From Roseimicrobium sp. ORNL1 (lineage in GTDB: Bacteria > Verrucomicrobiota > Verrucomicrobiia > Verrucomicrobiales > Verrucomicrobiaceae), in assembly GCF_011044495.1 (NCBI RefSeq), contig NZ_CP049143.1, positions 5,456,001 to 5,520,000 on the forward strand: 64,000 nt of DNA, read 5' to 3'. The number at the start of each line of letters is the position of its first letter. Position 1 is the stretch's first letter. This document shows positions 20,640 to 28,117 of the stretch, one piece after another. The notes beneath the pieces were generated by a model. The model saw only the letters and a list, made by a program, of their open reading frames with translations, made no database searches and was not told where the DNA came from. Both the position numbers and the translations under genes were made by a program.

Positions 20640-21248
20640 TTACGCAGCGGCATACAGGTCGGCCACGGCCTTCCAGTTCACCACATTCCACCAGGCGGCG
20701 ATGTAGTCAGGGCGCTTGTTCTGGTACTTGAGGTAATAGGCGTGCTCCCAGACGTCGAGGCCGAGCAGCGGGGTGCCAGAGCCGTCCATGAGGGGATTGT
20801 CCTGATTCGGAGTGGAGGTGATGGCGAGCTTGCCATCCTTCTTCACCAGCCAGGCCCAGCCGGAGCCGAAACGGCCCACGCCAGCCTTGGCAAACGCTTC
20901 CTTGAAAGCATCGAAGCTGCCGAAGGCTTCGTCGATGGCCTTGGCAAGGTCACCCGTGGGAGCGCCACCGGCATTCGGGGCCATGATATTCCAGAAGAAG
21001 GTGTGGTTCCAGTGGCCACCACCGTTGTTGCGCACCGGGCCGGCGATGTCCTTGGGCACCTTGTCGAGATTCTTCACCAGTTCATCGATGCTCAGGGCTT
21101 CGAGATCGGCCTTGCCCGCAATGGCGTTGTTCAGGTTGGTCACATACGCGTTGTGATGCCGACCGTGGTGAATCTCCATGGTGGTGGCATCAATGTGCGG
21201 TTCCAGAGCCGCCTTGTCATAGGGAAGAGGAGGGAGGGTGTGTGCCAT
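20640..21248 (-). CDS. sodA: Superoxide dismutase, Fe/Mn family (Mn-like)
   Basis: A 202-residue enzyme converting superoxide to oxygen and hydrogen peroxide. All four metal ligands are visible: His in [13 protein letters not shown], His in [11 protein letters not shown], and Asp/His in [20 protein letters not shown]. The GGGHWNH context and spacing favour the Mn or cambialistic type over strict FeSOD, but that assignment is inferred. There is no signal peptide, so it is cytoplasmic. Single gene with its own terminator; about 300 bases of non-coding DNA separate it from the divergent permease gene. Confidence 0.95.
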
Positions 21249-21547
21249 ACAATGGATTGGTTACAGATTCTCGATTTTAGTATTGGGCTTCGCGAATACG
21301 AGCCACAGACTGGCAGAGGATACGCACGCGGGCAAGCGGTTGGTGGCATGGATCTCGCGCATCCTGCGAGAGTTGTGATTCGGCCGCGGTCTACGCACCT
21401 TACGCGGTGGGCGCCATGTGACGAATCTGTGGAAACTGCCGCAACCCGGGGCCTAAACCGGTACGTAACACGTCGGTTACCTCGCTGTGATGTCGCATTC
21501 CCTGCTTGAACCCGTGGGCGAAGCGCGTTTAGAGGGGCTCCCACGAA
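21249..21547. other. Intergenic region between sod and permease genes
   Basis: The 299 bases hold the divergent promoters of the two flanking genes. No ORF, strong hairpin or known operator could be recognised; an inverted GTAAC-type pair near 21464-21480 is weak. Confidence 0.4.
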
Positions 21548-22762
21548 ATGATCCTCGCAGCCACTGACCCCCAACAGCTTCTAGACGCCTCTCGTGACGT
21601 CTCATTCGCCTTCCTGAGCATCCTTTTTGAAGGGGCTCCCTACATCCTGGTCGGCACGCTCCTTTCAGGGTTCATTGACGCCTTCCTCCCGGCGAAGCTT
21701 CTGGACAAGATGCTGCCGAAGAACAAGATCTTCGCGACCCTCGCGGCGGGTTTCCTCGGTCTCATCTTTCCGGTGTGTGAGTGCGCCGTGGTGCCAGTGG
21801 TGCGGCGACTCGTGCAGAAGGGGCTGCCTCTTTCCTGTGCGCTGGCCTACCTGCTCTCCGCTCCGATTGTGAACCCGATTGTGATCGTGAGCACCCTGAC
21901 GGCGTTCAAGGAATTCCAGCATCAAGGACACGCCGCCGCCTATCAGGAAACACTGGCGGCGCGGACTGCGGACGGCCAGGCAGCAGGACTTGGGGACCAC
22001 GCAGCGGCCCTGCAAAATGCGCTGAGCCAGACAGGCATGACCTTTGCCCGACTTTCGCTGGGCTACGTAGTGGCGGTGCTCATCGGCCTGGTGCTGCTTC
22101 GCAAGAAGCCGGAAGATGTGCTCGCCCCCTCCGTGGTGGCGGGTATTGCAGGCGGCGGAGGTGGCGGTGGCCATGTGCACACCCCACCGGACGGCGTCGA
22201 CGCGAAGCTGACGCATGCCATGCGCACCACCATGCGGGACTTCCTGGACACCGCGATGTACTTCGCCATTGGCGTGACCATCACCAGTGTCTTCAACACC
22301 CAGGTGGACCAGACCCGCATCGAAGCGGTCTCCACCAACGAATTCCTCGCCATCCCGTCCATGATGGGTCTGGCCTTCATCCTGGCCCTCTGCAGCACCT
22401 CGGACGCCTTCATCGCCGCGCCCATGGCCATGCCGGACTCGGGTCTGCCCAGTGCGGCCAAGCTGGCCTTCCTGGTCTTCGGTCCCATGCTGGACGTGAA
22501 GCTGGTGTTCATGTACGCCTCCATCTTCCGCCGGAAGTTCCTCATCGGCCTGTGCATCGCGCTCTTCCTCATGGTGGCCTTGCTAAGCAAGCCGTGGGCG
22601 CGTATCTTTTTCCCGGAAGCACTGACCAAGAAAAACGCCACCGCTACGCAGACTGTGACGCCGCCCTCACCGGCTCCAGCTCCGGCTCCCGCCGCCCCAG
22701 CTACGACGCCACCAGCACCTGCATCTCCAGTTCCAGCTCCATCGCCCTCCCCAAAACCCTGA
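21548..22762 (+). CDS. DUF318-family permease (ArsP/YcgR type)
   Basis: A 404-residue inner-membrane permease with about eight hydrophobic segments. The family motif [20 protein letters not shown], with its Cys-x-Cys pair, follows the second segment near residues 77-96, and the paired SAPIVNPIV motif lies near 110. The second family repeat shows [14 protein letters not shown] near 282. A Gly-rich loop with HVHT (about 205-215) could touch metal. The last 40 residues are a Pro/Ala-rich tail. Characterised relatives export organoarsenicals (ArsP) or act with a DUF1980 partner (YcgR-YcgQ in Bacillus). The partner gene starts 13 bases downstream, so the two form an operon. The transported substrate is unknown; a metal or metalloid is the best guess. 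Confidence 0.85.
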
Positions 22763-22775
22763 CCCCCTTCGTGCC

Positions 22776-24212
22776 ATGACCTCCAAGCGCAACGGCATTC
22801 ACATTCTCAGCGTGTCCCTGCTCCTGCTGTGGGGTGGCATCATGCTGTACTTCTACTCCAGCGGCCGCATCTCCCACTACCTGCCCCCGGACGGCATCTT
22901 CCAGCCCATGGTTTTGTGGAGTAGCATCGGATTGATCGTAGTGGCGCTTTTCAATCTCGCCACCATGAAGGCCAAGGAGGCAGCCTGCTGCGCCGGAGAA
23001 GACGACGGCTGCGGGCATGACCACGATGAGCACGACCATCATCATGATCACGCCCACAAGCATGACCACGGACACGACCATGGTCATCATGCGCACGAGC
23101 ACAAGGACGGCTGCTGTGGTGGACATGGGCATGGCCACGAACACAAACATGAGCACGTGCATGGTCCCGGCTGCGGCCACGATCACGGCCATGAGCACAA
23201 GCATGAACCTGCTCATGCGCACAGCCACAAGGATGACTGCTGCGGAGGCCATGAACACGGGCATTCTCACGACCATGGCCACAAGCACGAGCACGAAAAA
23301 GAACACGTGCATGGCCCCGGCTGCGGCCACGATCATGGACATCATCACCACGACCATGCCCATGAAGGCTGCTGCGGGCATGACCACGGTCACGAGCATG
23401 AACATGCGCACAGCCACGCCGGCCATTCTCACGGCATTCTCGAGGAGAGCAGCGCGGTGTGGAGAGGGGTCGCCATCTTCATGCTGGTGGTGCCCATCAC
23501 GACCGCCGCAGTGCTGACCCAGGATGAATTCACCGCCAATGCGGTGATGAACAAAGGCGTGTACTCGCAGAACTTCGGAAAGGGTGCCCACGCCGACCAG
23601 TTCTCCCTCAAGCGCGAGCGTACCGATGCCGGCACCGGCACCGGCAACGGCAATGCAGTGACCGCCGCCATCACCAACCCAAACAGCCCTCCCGCCGCAA
23701 CCGCCGGCACCACACCGGGTGCGCAGGACGTGATGCCCAAGGTGAATGTGGCTGAAGTGCATAAACAGGCCGCCCAGGGAGCCGAGGCGAAGAGCTACGG
23801 TTCCTTCACCCTCGCAGACTTGGAAGCCCAGGTCCCGAGGAACAAGGAGACGGGCAACTTCATGCTCGAGGTCACGGAACTCTACTACACCGCCGGTGAC
23901 AAGGAGGTGCAGTCCGTGCTCGCCGGACAGCCGGTGGAAACCACGGGCCAGGTCCTTCCTGAAAAGGTGAACAACGAGAAGGGCAACCGCGTCCGCCTCT
24001 TCCGCATGCTGGTGCAGTGCTGCGCCGCCGATGCCCGCCCGTATTCCATCCCAGTGGAGTTCGCCACCACCGCACCTCAGTTCAAGGACATGACTTGGGT
24101 GAAGGTATCCGGCAAGATGGCCTTCCGCGAAGAAGGCGGCCAGACCGTCCCGGTGCTGGAAGCCCTCAAGATCGAGGAAACCGCGGCGCCGGAGAATCAG
24201 ATGATCTACTGA
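22776..24212 (+). CDS. DUF1980/TIGR03943-type (YcgQ-like) protein with giant His/Cys-rich insert
   Basis: A 478-residue membrane protein that partners the upstream permease. Two N-terminal helices (residues 8-27 and 44-63) are followed by a hydrophilic insert at about 81-220 with roughly 58 His plus CCGG and PGCG Cys motifs; the unit [12 protein letters not shown] occurs twice, with related HKDGCC/HKDDCC blocks, showing internal duplication. A third helix ([17 protein letters not shown]) precedes the conserved DUF1980 region in the last 120 residues: [30 protein letters not shown] and [10 protein letters not shown]. Family members usually have only a short linker here. The insert should bind many zinc, nickel or copper ions and may store, sense or deliver them. 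A strong terminator follows. Confidence 0.88.
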
Positions 24213-24246
24213 GGCTGCGAGTTTTTGTCGCAAGCAGACCATTTTA

Positions 24247-24274
24247 AAACCCGCCTGCTCAGGCGGGTTTTTTT
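24247..24274 (+). terminator. Terminator of permease-DUF1980 operon
   Basis: Stem AAACCCGCCT/AGGCGGGTTT with a GCTC loop is followed by seven T, 34 bases after the stop codon. Confidence 0.93.
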
Positions 24275-24330
24275 GTGACTGGGGGACGACAACACCGTCG
24301 AAGCGTTCCGCGGACTACGCCCTTCAAGGC

Positions 24331-24376
24331 ATCTCCCTCCGCCTCCGCCACGCTATCTACGGACGCGTCGGAGCCC
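24331..24376. repeat. Solo arm of the 17349-17485 inverted-repeat family
   Basis: Its reverse complement GGGCTCCGACGCGTCCGTAG (then ATAGCGTGGCGGAGG...) matches the left arm at 17358-17403 over about 45 bases with few differences. The second arm is not found nearby, so this is a decayed copy. Confidence 0.7.
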
Positions 24377-24428
24377 GAAAATTTCCCACAAATCGTACAA
24401 ATCTCACGGAAGAGCAGACGAAGCGACA

Positions 24429-24478
24429 GCCCAAGGATCGGGAGTCTCTTTGATGCTCGTGGGTCATGGTGAGCGCTC
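24429..24478. repeat. Degenerate relic of the 7952-8114 element family
   Basis: GCCCAAGGATCGGGA at 24429-24443 is identical to the arm at 7955-7969, and CATGGTGAGCGCT about 25 bases later resembles CATGGTGACCGCT inside the complete element. The other arm is lost. Confidence 0.55.
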
Positions 24479-24483
24479 CCCCC

Positions 24484-25614
24484 TCACTTCCCAAACCCAC
24501 CAAACAACGCAATGATATCGATGAGGAACATCAGCACGATGGCAGCCTCCAGGACCACCATCAGCCGGTGATTCTGCTCCTGCTTCAGCATCTCGTAGAG
24601 CTCGTCCAGCGTCTTCAGCTTGTCATCAATCGTGCGATGCCAGTCGCCGAGGTGGAAGCGGCGTGATACGGCGTCGTAGAGCCGGGCAAGGTGCCAGTCA
24701 CCGAAGAACTTGGTGATGTTCGAAAGCTCGTCGCTGAAGCGTGCAAGGTCGATACGGACCTCACGAAGGCGATTCATGAGCACATTTCTGCTGAGGTGCT
24801 TGGGAGGGCGCAGCAGGTCCGCATAAGCACGCTCCAAAGCGCCATCCAGAAGACGGTCGTAGGCGATGAGTTCCTCAAGCTGGAGATTCGCCAGCTCCAG
24901 CACATGCAGCGTTTCATCCATGTCCGCCGGCTGGTCCATGACCAGGGCGGCGTCCCAGTCCACCACCACGAGATCCGTACGGTAGTAAGAGAGGAACTGG
25001 CCGGTGGACTCCTCCGCCTCCTGTTGGGAGAGAAGGTTGCCGTCAGGCTCCTGGGTCAAGATGGCAGCGATGTGCCTGCGATTGGATTCAAACCATGCCT
25101 CCGCGTCGAAAGGCGTGGATACACCATCTTCCCTTGCCTTCGGAGTCTCCAGGCAGAAGACGGTGTACGCCTCCCCTTCCGGCAGCGCCGCAGCGGGCCT
25201 CACCGCATACGGTGCGAGTTCGTCATGGATGGATTTTGCAAGCGAAACCAGATGCTTGTGAATGACCTCCTGCGCAAAGGCAGGGCTGTCAAAAGCGCCA
25301 AGCTGCTCCAACTGCAAATGGGTGAAGGGCACCCGCAACATGATGCTCACCGCACCAATGGGCAACACCTTCGCCATCCGCTGCACCACCACCTCGCCGA
25401 AAGGTGAAGCCATCTTCACCGGCTCCAGCCGTGCCGCGCGCAGATGCTGGAAGAGGTGCTGCTTCGGACTGCGCTTCGCCGGCCCCACCTGATGCGGCAG
25501 TAGCGGCTGGCCGAGCAACGTTTCCGGAATGGGCCGCTTCAACTCATAAGCCACGTCCACGGCAAACAGATAAACCACTTCCCCGGTGAATGCCTGCGGT
25601 GTCGAAGTCGCCAT
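24484..25614 (-). CDS. DUF155/RMD1-like membrane-anchored protein
   Basis: A 376-residue protein from the ATG at 25614. The N-terminal half is alpha/beta (VVYLFAVDVAYELKRP, VLPIGAVSIMLRVPF, TDLVVVDWDAALV). The C-terminal half is helical: LEELIAYDRLLDGALERAY, LREVRIDLARFSDELSNITKF, a DKLKTLDELYEMLKQEQNHR coiled-coil-like helix, then one terminal membrane helix (LMVVLEAAIVLMFLIDIIALF). The long helix, NHR and closing membrane anchor is the layout of the DUF155 family (yeast RMD1/Sif2, bacterial YagE), whose molecular role is unclear. It is a single gene, with the terminus facing the permease operon. Confidence 0.6.
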   Translation of the reverse strand: MATSTPQAFTGEVVYLFAVDVAYELKRPIPETLLGQPLLPHQVGPAKRSPKQHLFQHLRAARLEPVKMASPFGEVVVQRMAKVLPIGAVSIMLRVPFTHLQLEQLGAFDSPAFAQEVIHKHLVSLAKSIHDELAPYAVRPAAALPEGEAYTVFCLETPKAREDGVSTPFDAEAWFESNRRHIAAILTQEPDGNLLSQQEAEESTGQFLSYYRTDLVVVDWDAALVMDQPADMDETLHVLELANLQLEELIAYDRLLDGALERAYADLLRPPKHLSRNVLMNRLREVRIDLARFSDELSNITKFFGDWHLARLYDAVSRRFHLGDWHRTIDDKLKTLDELYEMLKQEQNHRLMVVLEAAIVLMFLIDIIALFGGFGK

Positions 25615-25873
25615 GGCCTGCGTTGTGTCAGAAGGTTTACACGCAAAGCATAGCGCTCTCACGCGACGCTCCAAGCAAACTTTACGAGTCATTGCCCAAG
25701 ACTGAAGTTATCGATGGCTTCAAAACGCAACCGCCGCTCTGCAACCAATGAGTCACGCGAAGAAGCCGCTCACGGTGGCAGGAATGTCATTCTCTGCGCA
25801 TCGCGTGAAGTGTCCCTGATGCTTGAATAAGGGGCACTCGCAGTTCCCGCCCCTGCTCGTCCGGCATCACCGC

Positions 25874-28117
25874 ATGGTCCCCCTCCAAGCTCTCGATACC
25901 ACCCTCTTCCGCAGCATCAATCAAGGTCTGGCCAATCCGGTCTTCGACTCGGCCATTCCCTATGCGAGCGGCAATGCGCTCTTCTACCCGGTGCTGCTGG
26001 CGGCGGCAGTGTTCGTCATCTGGCGCTGGCAGCGGCGCGGCTGGGCCTTTGTCTTGCTGGCAATCCTTGCCGCGTTGGTAGCCAGCAACTGCGTGTGCGG
26101 ACCACTGAAGGATCTCATCGGAAGGCCAAGGCCCTTCGTCACCATGACTGATGTGCGGCTGCTGGCGGGGAATGGTTCCGGCTCCCATGCCATGCCCTCC
26201 TGCCACGCGGCGAACTGGGGCGCGCTGGTGGTGGTGACGTGGATGTTCTGGCGCCGCACATGGCGCTTCATGGTGCCGCTTGCACTGCTGGTCGGTTTCT
26301 CCCGCGTGTACACCGGCGTGCACTATCCCTCGGATGTGCTTGCGGGATTCCTCCTTGGTGGTGTTTCCACGTGGGTACTCATCCGCGCGCTGGAATGGCT
26401 GTGGCAGATGCTGGGGCACATCACCTTCCCCGCGCTCTGGGCGCGATGCCCTTCGCTGTATCGCGATGTCCCGGCGAGACCAGAATTGCTCACACCCGAG
26501 GCATCTCATGTGAGTTGGAGGAATGCCGCGTGGGTGCTGATGATTGGCTTGCTCATCGAACGCCTCATCTACATCGCGAGTGGCACCATTGAACTCAGCG
26601 AAGATGAAGCATACCAGTGGATGTGGAGTCAGCGGCTGGACTGGGCCTACTACAGCAAGCCACCCCTCATCGCGTGGCTGCAATGGCTCGGCACGAATCT
26701 CTGGGGAGACACCGCCTTCGGTGTGCGCTTCATGTCACCCGTGCTGGCGCTGATGTGCAATATGCTGGTGTGGTGCTTCGTGCGAAAGCGTACGGATGAA
26801 CGCACGGCCTTCTGGGTGGTAGCGGCGTTTGCGGTGACTCCCCTCTTCGCCGTCGGCGGTGTGCTGCTCACGGTGGATGCGCCCACGGTGCTCTTCTACA
26901 CCGCGGCAGCGATGGCCATGTGGAAGGCGATGGAGCAGGACAGCACGAAATGGTGGGCACTCGCGGGCGTGACTGCGGCACTCGGCTTCTTGAGCAAGTT
27001 CTTCTCGCCCTTCCTCTGGGCGGGACTGTTCCTCTTCCTCGCATTCAACCGCACGTATCGGCATCAGCTTCGCAGGCCCGGCCCGTGGCTGGCGCTGGCC
27101 ATGAACATCGCCGCGGCCTTCCCCGTGCTCTATTGGAACATCACGCATGACTGGGTGACGGTGACACATCTCAAGGAGCGCGGCGGCCTGGATGGCTCTT
27201 CGCATCTGAACTTCGCCACGCTGGGTGAGTTCGCGGTCTCGGTGACTGGCTTGCTGAATCCCGTGTTCTTCCTCGCAGCAGCATTTGCCGTGTGGGGCTG
27301 GTGCCGCATGAAGGAGAAGCCTGCGCTGCTTTCCTTCCTCGTTTGCATGAGCGCGCCAGTGTTCCTGGTCTACCTCGCCCTGTCCGTGCAGGCGAAGGCC
27401 CAGCCGAACTGGATCGCGCCCGCAGCCCCGATGTTATTCCTCGCCGCGGCGACCTGGTGGCACCTTCGTGCTAAGAACGGCGCGCGCCTGCCTGCACGCT
27501 GGCTGGCCGCGGGATTCGTGATTGGATTGCCCGCAGTGATCTTCATCCATGACACGGACCTCATGAAAAAGGCCGTGCGCATCGACCTGAAGCCGGGCGC
27601 GGATCCGCTCTCCCGCGTGCGTGGTGGCAGCGATCTCGCGCGCGTGATGGAAGAGCAGCGGCTCAAGCTGGAAACACAAACCGGCGTGCCCACCTTCCTG
27701 CTCGCGGATCACTACGGGCGTGCCAGCCTGATGAATTTCTACAATCCCACCGCCCGCGAGATGCTTCCTGCGAATCAGCTCTCCTTCGTGCTGAGCGCGG
27801 ACAAGCCGCAGAATCAATACTGGTTCTGGCCGACCTACACCTCGCGCATTGGGGAGAATGCCATCTTCGTGCGCCAGGGCGCCGTGGAGAAGGGCGCACC
27901 GAAGCGCCTGCGCCAGGAGTTCGAGAAGGTCGAGAGCCTCGGCATCTTCAAAATCCGACATGAGGGCGCGGTGTGCCAGCAGGTCCAGATCTTCGCCTGT
28001 AGATGCCTGCGTCCCCTACCGGGCACAAGTCCGGTGCAGGCCGCAGCCGGAACGTTGCAGGCGTCCGTACACACCGACGCGGACGCCTCATCTGCTGCCG
28101 CTACACCAGCCCCTTAA
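25874..28117 (+). CDS. Fusion of PAP2 lipid phosphatase and GT39-type glycosyltransferase
   Basis: A polytopic inner-membrane protein of 747 residues. Residues 1-200 form a PAP2 phosphatase with the full three-part signature: KDLIGRPRP, PSCHAAN (PSGH class) and SRVYTGVHYPSD. Residues about 215-735 form an ArnT/dolichyl-P-mannose-like (PMT_2) glycosyltransferase: SEDEAYQWMWSQRLDWAYYS with the conserved acidic pair in the first loop, KPPLIAWL, then around ten further membrane helices and a soluble end. The fusion suggests that one protein both dephosphorylates a polyprenyl diphosphate carrier and transfers a sugar from polyprenyl phosphate to an acceptor such as lipid A. ATG at 25874 was preferred over TTG at 25823. 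The last 40 residues run through a GC-rich hairpin and overlap the convergent gene by 17 bases. Confidence 0.88.
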   Translation: MVPLQALDTTLFRSINQGLANPVFDSAIPYASGNALFYPVLLAAAVFVIWRWQRRGWAFVLLAILAALVASNCVCGPLKDLIGRPRPFVTMTDVRLLAGNGSGSHAMPSCHAANWGALVVVTWMFWRRTWRFMVPLALLVGFSRVYTGVHYPSDVLAGFLLGGVSTWVLIRALEWLWQMLGHITFPALWARCPSLYRDVPARPELLTPEASHVSWRNAAWVLMIGLLIERLIYIASGTIELSEDEAYQWMWSQRLDWAYYSKPPLIAWLQWLGTNLWGDTAFGVRFMSPVLALMCNMLVWCFVRKRTDERTAFWVVAAFAVTPLFAVGGVLLTVDAPTVLFYTAAAMAMWKAMEQDSTKWWALAGVTAALGFLSKFFSPFLWAGLFLFLAFNRTYRHQLRRPGPWLALAMNIAAAFPVLYWNITHDWVTVTHLKERGGLDGSSHLNFATLGEFAVSVTGLLNPVFFLAAAFAVWGWCRMKEKPALLSFLVCMSAPVFLVYLALSVQAKAQPNWIAPAAPMLFLAAATWWHLRAKNGARLPARWLAAGFVIGLPAVIFIHDTDLMKKAVRIDLKPGADPLSRVRGGSDLARVMEEQRLKLETQTGVPTFLLADHYGRASLMNFYNPTAREMLPANQLSFVLSADKPQNQYWFWPTYTSRIGENAIFVRQGAVEKGAPKRLRQEFEKVESLGIFKIRHEGAVCQQVQIFACRCLRPLPGTSPVQAAAGTLQASVHTDADASSAAATPAP

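What the first reader, a model, noticed from the sequence alone, without database searches (positions are those of the whole stretch)
21548..24212. Permease pair with a 140-residue His/Cys-rich insert
The DUF1980-type partner carries about 58 His plus repeated CCGG and PGCG Cys motifs between its membrane helices, far beyond the short linker usual for the family, with a visible internal duplication of the [12 protein letters not shown] unit. The partner permease has a Cys-x-Cys motif and a His-containing loop. The pair looks like a dedicated metal or metalloid storage/export device with a built-in metal sponge.
Basis: partly seen in the sequence, partly recalled or inferred. Interest (0 to 1): 0.62.

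Follow-up and report, generated by a model that had tools for sequence, protein, structure and literature searches.

The report
Likely zinc permease with histidine-rich loop
A bacterial two-gene membrane transporter, probably for zinc, carries a very long histidine- and cysteine-rich loop that its relatives share in varying length, which gives a poorly understood transporter family a testable metal-handling role.

Summary
In detail: an ArsP_1 permease (21548-22762) and a DUF1980 partner (22776-24212) whose TM2-TM3 linker has 58 His and 11 Cys in 152 residues. The "duplication" is one exact 12-residue unit, not a recent large copy. The expanded loop is not peculiar to this genome: all 33 own-family pairs examined carry it (41-179 aa, median 109; window 165), while family f2 has 21-25 aa. 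Between congeners 54 of 57 aligned loop His are kept, 31 through a synonymous codon change. (1) A promoter-like element, GCTTGAA-N15-CGTTTA, sits upstream of the permease: exact in 24 of 33 own-family pairs, once exact in the 7.96-Mb genome. (2) In 3 of 6 distinct plasmid-borne homologous pairs, Zur-like boxes (recalled consensus) lie upstream. Published EMSA shows B. anthracis Zur binding a region that such a permease shares with yciC. Best reading: a zinc transporter or allocator of the unsolved YcgRQ/ScfAB kind whose short Cys/His linker became a multi-site metal tether. Metal, direction and membrane side are not shown; "export/storage" is unproven.

The parts
21504..21531 (+). Promoter-like element GCTTGAA-N15-CGTTTA upstream of the permease, resembling an ECF-sigma promoter (resemblance recalled)
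   Evidence: One exact site in the genome; exact in 24 of 33 own-family loci, 0-4 mismatches in all 33, only at spacing 15; exact in 46 of 59 family genomes, 51 matches against 9 for the reversed control; permease downstream in 28 of 30 fetched matches
21548..22762 (+). ArsP_1 permease, 404 aa, conserved CxC at residues 77-79
   Evidence: PF03773 180.5 bits; conservation over 46 permeases
22776..24212 (+). DUF1980/TIGR03943-type partner, 478 aa, three predicted helices and a C-terminal OB-like domain
   Evidence: PF21537 50.8 bits; model with 49 sequences; OB folds
22986..23441 (+). His/Cys-rich linker, residues 71-222 of the partner (58 His, 11 Cys), between helices 2 and 3; low-confidence (probably disordered) in the model
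23838..24209 (+). C-terminal domain, about residues 355-478, with the CCAAD motif (C415, C416)
   Evidence: Alignments A2 and A3; structure
24253..24274 (+). Terminator-like hairpin and T run after the pair
   Evidence: 3 such sites found against a mean of 2.4 in shuffles, so not above chance by itself

Best explanation
The two genes encode the subunits of a YcgR-YcgQ/ScfA-ScfB-type membrane transporter: an ArsP_1 permease and a three-helix DUF1980 partner with a C-terminal OB-like domain. The likeliest substrate is zinc. In most distant homologues seen here the TM2-TM3 linker of the partner is a short His/Cys-bearing stretch; in the window's family it has been stretched into a disordered multi-site metal-binding tether. 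Proposed working: the tether captures and concentrates metal at the mouth of the permease and passes it to or from the CxC motif, as the His-rich loops of ZnT/ZIP zinc transporters are thought to do (recalled). The operon has its own conserved promoter-like element of ECF-sigma type. SHOWN: anatomy, family-wide loop of variable length, conservation of loop His through codon change, one promoter-like site in the genome, Zur-like boxes at some homologous pairs. INFERRED: metal binding by the loop (very likely), zinc as substrate (likely), sigma-factor control, direction and side of the membrane (open; weak lean to import/allocation and a cytosolic loop).
For: Linker survey: 33 of 33 own-family pairs 41-179 aa, 4-63 His; foreign linkers CECGHNH, CDCGCGHSH, CGCGGEHHNHNH, CGCSDHDHSH, CNCGADH, and a His-only one in Rhodococcus. 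Selection: 54 of 57 aligned loop His shared with the congener, 31 with another codon. Zinc link: Zur-like boxes upstream of 3 of 6 distinct foreign pairs, none of 300 resamplings as good; four boxes with 2-3 mismatches in the 12.3-kb L178, one before a CobW GTPase. PMC6336718 (passages): B. anthracis Zur shifts the promoter fragment of an ArsP_1 permease operon. Priestia pairs beside HMA2 proteins and a P-type ATPase, in L174 also CopC and YcnI. Profile search of the PDB: best sequence match zinc transporter 7 (E 0.0057), over the His-rich part, then SlyD; composition-driven.
Against: No Zur-like box at the thresholds used in any of 46 Verrucomicrobial upstream regions, the window's included, nor at 3 of 6 foreign pairs. 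In PMC6336718 the Table 1 primer pair for the permease probe is the same as for yciC, so binding cannot be assigned to the permease alone, and the authors infer positive control of it. SO_0444 in the same superfamily is proposed as a Cu/Zn exporter. Positive-inside charges place the linker outside in 32 of 39 Verrucomicrobial partners tested and in L176 and L177, but inside in four distinct Bacillota proteins and the window protein. Four distant Verrucomicrobial linkers have no His. The genome has three ZnuA-family proteins, so it need not depend on this pair for zinc uptake. No metal was measured.
Confidence: 0.5

Rival explanations
1. Metal efflux/detoxification device with a built-in sponge: the loop binds excess cytosolic metal and feeds it to the permease for export.
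For: SO_0444 (ArsP_1) is needed under Zn or Cu stress and proposed as an efflux protein (PMC3219624, passages); an SO_0444-family gene is induced by Cd and Cu in Nitratiruptor (PMC10092412, passages). The ECF-like promoter suggests a stress response. Authors of PMC6336718 infer positive control by Zur for the permease operon. Copper-type genes near the Priestia pair.
Against: The window permease is far below the SO_0444 equivalog cut-off (75.2 against 300). Homologous pairs share Zur-like boxes with a CobW gene, a zinc-limitation association (recalled and PMC6336718). No exporter regulator (ArsR, MerR) recurs beside the pair in the 47 loci clustered (genes of 4 or more loci listed).
Confidence: 0.27
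2. The pair handles another metal (copper, nickel, cobalt) rather than zinc; the loop is a generic His/Cys chelator.
For: His/Cys tracts bind several d-block metals (general chemistry); CopC, YcnI and HMA2 genes near Priestia pairs; SO_0444 acts on Cu as well as Zn.
Against: Zur-like boxes at 3 of 6 foreign pairs point to zinc.
Confidence: 0.15
3. The loop is a functionally idle low-complexity tract that grows and shrinks by indels; the permease pair works without it.
For: Length ranges from 41 to 179 aa within the family; between congeners the loop has 28 gapped positions against 9 in the rest, and 76% (120/158) against 80% (247/307) of aligned residues identical.
Against: 54 of 57 aligned loop His are kept, 31 by synonymous change; 33 of 33 family members keep a His-bearing loop; in 40 loops of 60 aa or more His is 30% +/- 5% and Cys 6% +/- 1.5% (this set includes the permease-less L070).
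Confidence: 0.08

Closest known systems
YcgR-YcgQ (B. subtilis) / ScfA-ScfB (S. pyogenes) / SMU.746-747 (S. mutans) permease pairs (ArsP_1 + DUF1980/TIGR03943)
   Same: Gene pair, order in the foreign loci seen here, three-helix partner with CCAAD-bearing C-terminal domain; B. subtilis genes reported under ECF sigma control (PMC5584981, passage), matching the ECF-like element here.
   Different: Linker about 23-35 aa in the foreign pairs examined against about 165 here; 24 aligned foreign/window C-terminal identities only 22-25%. The YcgRQ and ScfAB sequences themselves were not compared here.
SO_0444-family Cu/Zn efflux transporters (NF033936)
   Same: ArsP_1 superfamily permease.
   Different: 75.2 bits against a cut-off of 300.
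ZnT (e.g. ZnT7) and ZIP zinc transporters with His-rich loops
   Same: Works-like analogy: long His-rich loop on a membrane metal transporter; ZnT7 was the best sequence match in the PDB profile search, E 0.0057.
   Different: No evidence of homology; the match is to the His-rich tract and the folds are different families.
DUF3299 protein PA4066 of P. aeruginosa (4hsp)
   Same: Second Foldseek match of the model, over the C-terminal OB-like domain, E 1.5e-4. That PA4063-4066 is a zinc-limitation operon is recalled.
   Different: OB folds are common (many replication proteins rank with it); TM-score to the target only 0.40; not found by sequence profile.

Membership tests
DUF1980/TIGR03943 partner | DUF1980_C (PF21537) over its gathering score | tested here: met
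   50.8 against 25.9 bits
DUF1980/TIGR03943 partner | DUF1980 N-terminal domain (PF09323) | tested here: inconclusive
   Not reported for the window protein at E up to 1, while Priestia proteins match it; the long loop splits the domain. L177 with a short linker also misses it.
DUF1980/TIGR03943 partner | TIGR03943 equivalog score cut-off | tested here: not met
   78 against 88.8 bits; so I call it DUF1980-type, not a TIGR03943 equivalog
DUF1980/TIGR03943 partner | Adjacent ArsP_1 permease and CC(x)AD motif shared with foreign members | tested here: met
ArsP_1 permease (PF03773) | Score over the gathering cut-off | tested here: met
   180.5 against 32.3 bits
SO_0444 Cu/Zn efflux transporter (NF033936) | Equivalog score cut-off | tested here: not met
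   75.2 against 300 bits
SaoE efflux transporter (NF040736) | Equivalog score cut-off | tested here: not met
   55.3 against 325 bits
Zur regulon member | Zur box upstream of the window pair | tested here: inconclusive
   None at the thresholds used with three recalled consensus strings; the Verrucomicrobial Zur box is not known to me
ECF-sigma-dependent operon | Promoter recognised by an ECF sigma factor | tested here: inconclusive
   Conserved two-part element of that type; no cognate sigma identified, no transcript data
Zinc transporter (function) | Measured zinc binding or transport | not testable with these tools
   Needs experiment

The most novel reading that the evidence does not exclude
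In this family an obscure, widespread transporter pair has become a membrane-tethered metal reservoir: a transporter subunit with tens of metal sites, sized differently in every species, switched on from a promoter of which this genome holds a single exact copy, i.e. a nearly one-operon sigma regulon. It would act as buffer, donor and transporter in one complex.
Probability: 0.2. Interest if true: 0.7.

Novelty: new variant of a known kind. Interest (0 to 1): 0.5.

Why it matters
The ArsP_1/DUF1980 pair is part of the core genome of group A Streptococcus, where it matters in infection, and its function was unknown to the authors of the 2017 paper (PMC5584981, abstract and passages). The version here exaggerates the one feature, a Cys/His linker, that points to a metal. 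With Zur-like boxes at some distant homologues it turns 'unknown permease' into a concrete zinc hypothesis that can be tested in B. subtilis 168 or a Verrucomicrobium. The conserved single-site promoter-like element is a handle on when the system is used.

Tried and rejected
Recent large internal duplication: rejected. A one-off insert in this genome: rejected (33 of 33 own-family pairs). SO_0444 or SaoE equivalog: scores far below cut-off. Anti-phage role: no PADLOC match for the two proteins. RNA element: no Rfam match at gathering scores in the window. Conserved palindromic operator upstream: none seen by eye in the 19 upstream regions printed. MerR-type control: unlikely, as the spacer between the half-elements has almost no conserved bases. 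Operator shared with the genome's ZnuA-family genes: none seen by eye in the palindromes printed. Relatives of the whole window protein on plasmids: none at 1e-5; the foreign set came from the C-terminal query L079 (19 records, of which I opened 6: H1, H2, H4, H6, H18, H19). Single-sequence fold: poor (mean pLDDT 40.8). Positive-inside topology: contradictory. Conserved neighbours: apart from the pair, only the SOD gene recurred, in 8 of 47 loci; the other clusters had 4 loci each. Literature in the open-licence library: 'COG3689 zur', 'TIGR03943' and 'Zur COG0523 COG0701' gave no papers; 'DUF1980 zinc' gave one, a lipoprotein table; 'ycgQ ycgR zinc' gave one; any three of COG0701/DUF318/ArsP_1/zinc/Zur gave only PMC6336718. 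So I have not seen this loop or this promoter-like element in print, within those searches. VIA-align tested in effect only residues 355-473 (OB folds).

Rows dropped or incomplete: L077 was left out of the N- and C-terminal alignments because its helices were mis-set but is counted in the loop survey; L070 (no permease nearby) is left out of the loop-survey groups and the upstream set; L211 and six contig-end loci had no N-terminal domain match; L062 gave only 140 nt of upstream. The topology count used 39 of 47 proteins with three helices starting near the N-terminus. The named scan kept 80 of 228 confirmed relatives, all with Verrucomicrobial titles, so it says nothing about other phyla. 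In the element survey, 39 of 85 upstream regions were exact, but many of these loci are the same genomes as, so I do not add them. The family name Verrucomicrobiaceae is inferred from titles of named records that match G contigs in length (e.g. L093/G002, L135/G024).

Full report
OBSERVATION. The two ORFs are as stated. The first is an ArsP_1 permease (PF03773, 180.5 bits); the second has a DUF1980 C-terminal domain (PF21537, 50.8 bits) and scores 78 bits against TIGR03943, whose cut-off is 88.8. Between the second and third helices of the partner (residues 71-222) lie 58 His and 11 Cys. The 12-residue unit [12 protein letters not shown] occurs twice exactly, but the wider DNA around the copies is 88/150 identical and the best long offset is 39% identical: a repeated motif, not a fresh duplication.

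THE INSERT IS A FAMILY TRAIT. Of 57 related genomes (the window's included), 46 have a DUF1980_C match. I fetched the 46 other loci and measured the linker with profile models of the flanking domains. In the window's own family all 33 permease-linked partners have linkers of 41-179 aa (median 109) with 4-63 His; 32 have 15 or more. The window (165 aa by this measure, 58 His) is third; its congener L043 has 179 aa and 63 His. In 13 loci of other families of the order: 17-104 aa, 0-37 His. In nine loci of family f2: 21-25 aa, 3-7 His, often CGHDHG..HDHES. Three loci further out: 7-30 aa, 0-4 His. Four of these loci have no His at all (L069, L078, L216, L217). A phylum sample gave the domain in 20 of 288 genomes. 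Six distinct plasmid-borne pairs from Priestia (two kinds), Pontibacillus, Pseudalkalibacillus, Rhodococcus and Magnetococcus, from 6 of 19 hit records opened, have linkers of about 23-35 aa with His and, in five of six, Cys. So a short His/Cys-bearing linker is usual, not universal, and the window's lineage stretched it.

SELECTION. Between window and congener 57 loop His are aligned; 54 are His in both and 31 of those use different codons. In 40 linkers of 60 aa or more (one of them the permease-less L070) His is 30% +/- 5% and Cys 6% +/- 1.5%. The loop has 28 gapped positions against 9 in the rest, and 120/158 against 247/307 identical residues. The tract turns over by indels but its chemistry is held, as expected of a metal-binding tether.

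PROMOTER-LIKE ELEMENT. The upstream regions showed an asymmetric two-part element, GCTTGAA-N15-CGTTTA, 39-84 nt before the chosen start codons. Over 46 upstream regions it is exact in 24 and within one mismatch in 27, only at spacing 15; all 33 own-family loci have it there with 0-4 mismatches, while the 13 loci of other families have only chance-like best matches (4-7 mismatches at scattered places). In mononucleotide shuffles one mismatch or better came up in 0.0004 of regions. The window genome has one exact site and one 1-mismatch site elsewhere; the reversed control had seven matches at the same tolerance, so the 1-mismatch site is chance-like. At 2 mismatches the window alone gives one match against 0.71 expected, so only the exactness and the conservation carry weight. 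In 59 family genomes, 46 have an exact match, 51 matches in all against 9 for the control; of the 30 fetched (L181-L210), 28 have the permease just downstream, L191 and L206 do not. The spacer carries almost no information, as in promoters rather than repressor sites; GAAC with CGTT resembles ECF-sigma promoters (recalled). No sigma-70-type site was found in 21200-24500. B. subtilis ycgRQ is reported under ECF sigma control (PMC5584981, passage). No cognate sigma factor was identified.

ZINC. Upstream of the foreign permeases, Zur-like boxes (recalled consensus) stand at L173 and L174 (4 and 3 mismatches of 22; near-identical loci, counted once), L178 (3 of 22) and L177 (1 of 17), with none of 300 resamplings as good; the second pair of L174, L175 and L176 have none. 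L178 holds four boxes with 2-3 mismatches in 12.3 kb, one before a CobW GTPase. A published study shows by EMSA that B. anthracis Zur binds the region upstream of an ArsP_1 permease operon, BAS1632 (PMC6336718, passages). Two cautions: its Table 1 gives the same primer pair for the permease and the neighbouring yciC probe, so the binding may serve yciC; and the authors infer positive control from box position. The Priestia pairs neighbour HMA2 proteins and a P-type ATPase, and in L174 CopC and YcnI; the Pontibacillus and Rhodococcus pairs have no evident metal neighbour. No Zur-like box was found in the 46 Verrucomicrobial upstream regions. The window genome has three FUR-family and three ZnuA-family genes.

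STRUCTURE. With 49 sequences the model (mean pLDDT 64.7, pTM 0.40) gives helices 2-28, 42-62 and 227-247, a low-confidence loop, and a mostly well-predicted C-terminal domain with five strands. Foldseek and VIA-align match OB folds (Ten1 Z 11.2, 101 residues, 3.2 A; archaeal MCM Z 10.5). The second Foldseek hit is the DUF3299 protein PA4066 (E 1.5e-4); its zinc-operon context is recalled, and the sequence profile search did not find it. Positive charges place the linker inside for four distinct Bacillota proteins and for the window protein, but outside for 32 of 39 Verrucomicrobial partners (4 inside, 3 tied) and for L176 and L177: the side is undecided. A Staphylococcus DUF1980 protein is listed among lipoproteins (PMC5020093, passage), which would put its C-terminal domain outside.

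INTERPRETATION. The best reading is a zinc-type transporter complex with a metal-binding tether that feeds or receives metal at the permease. Export with a sponge remains a strong rival, because SO_0444 is a proposed exporter (PMC3219624, passages) and the promoter-like element looks stress-related. What is new, within the searches made, is the extreme family-wide tether and the conserved single-site promoter-like element on an otherwise known transporter kind.

Noticed in passing
20640-21248 (- strand): An Fe/Mn superoxide dismutase gene is divergent from the pair; the same arrangement occurs in 8 of 47 loci, including the distant L078.
   Followed up: partly
L070:6237-7322: A second DUF1980-type gene in genome G012, with no permease found nearby and only 4 His in its linker.
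   Followed up: no
L071:4952-6322: In this locus the permease itself carries a His-rich central loop (19 His between residues 120 and 235).
   Followed up: no
L178:2507-6407: Four Zur-like boxes in one plasmid stretch of Pseudalkalibacillus, before a CobW GTPase, the permease pair and a gene for an NAD(P)-binding protein: looks like a zinc-limitation island.
   Followed up: partly
25856-28117 (+ strand): A fused PAP2 phosphatase and PMT-type mannosyltransferase ORF.
   Followed up: no
L227:1369-1388 (own genome, about 7.84 Mb): A ZnuA-family gene has a near-perfect palindrome AAGTTAGTCTGGACTAACTC just upstream, possibly an operator of a neighbouring regulator; not tested.
   Followed up: no
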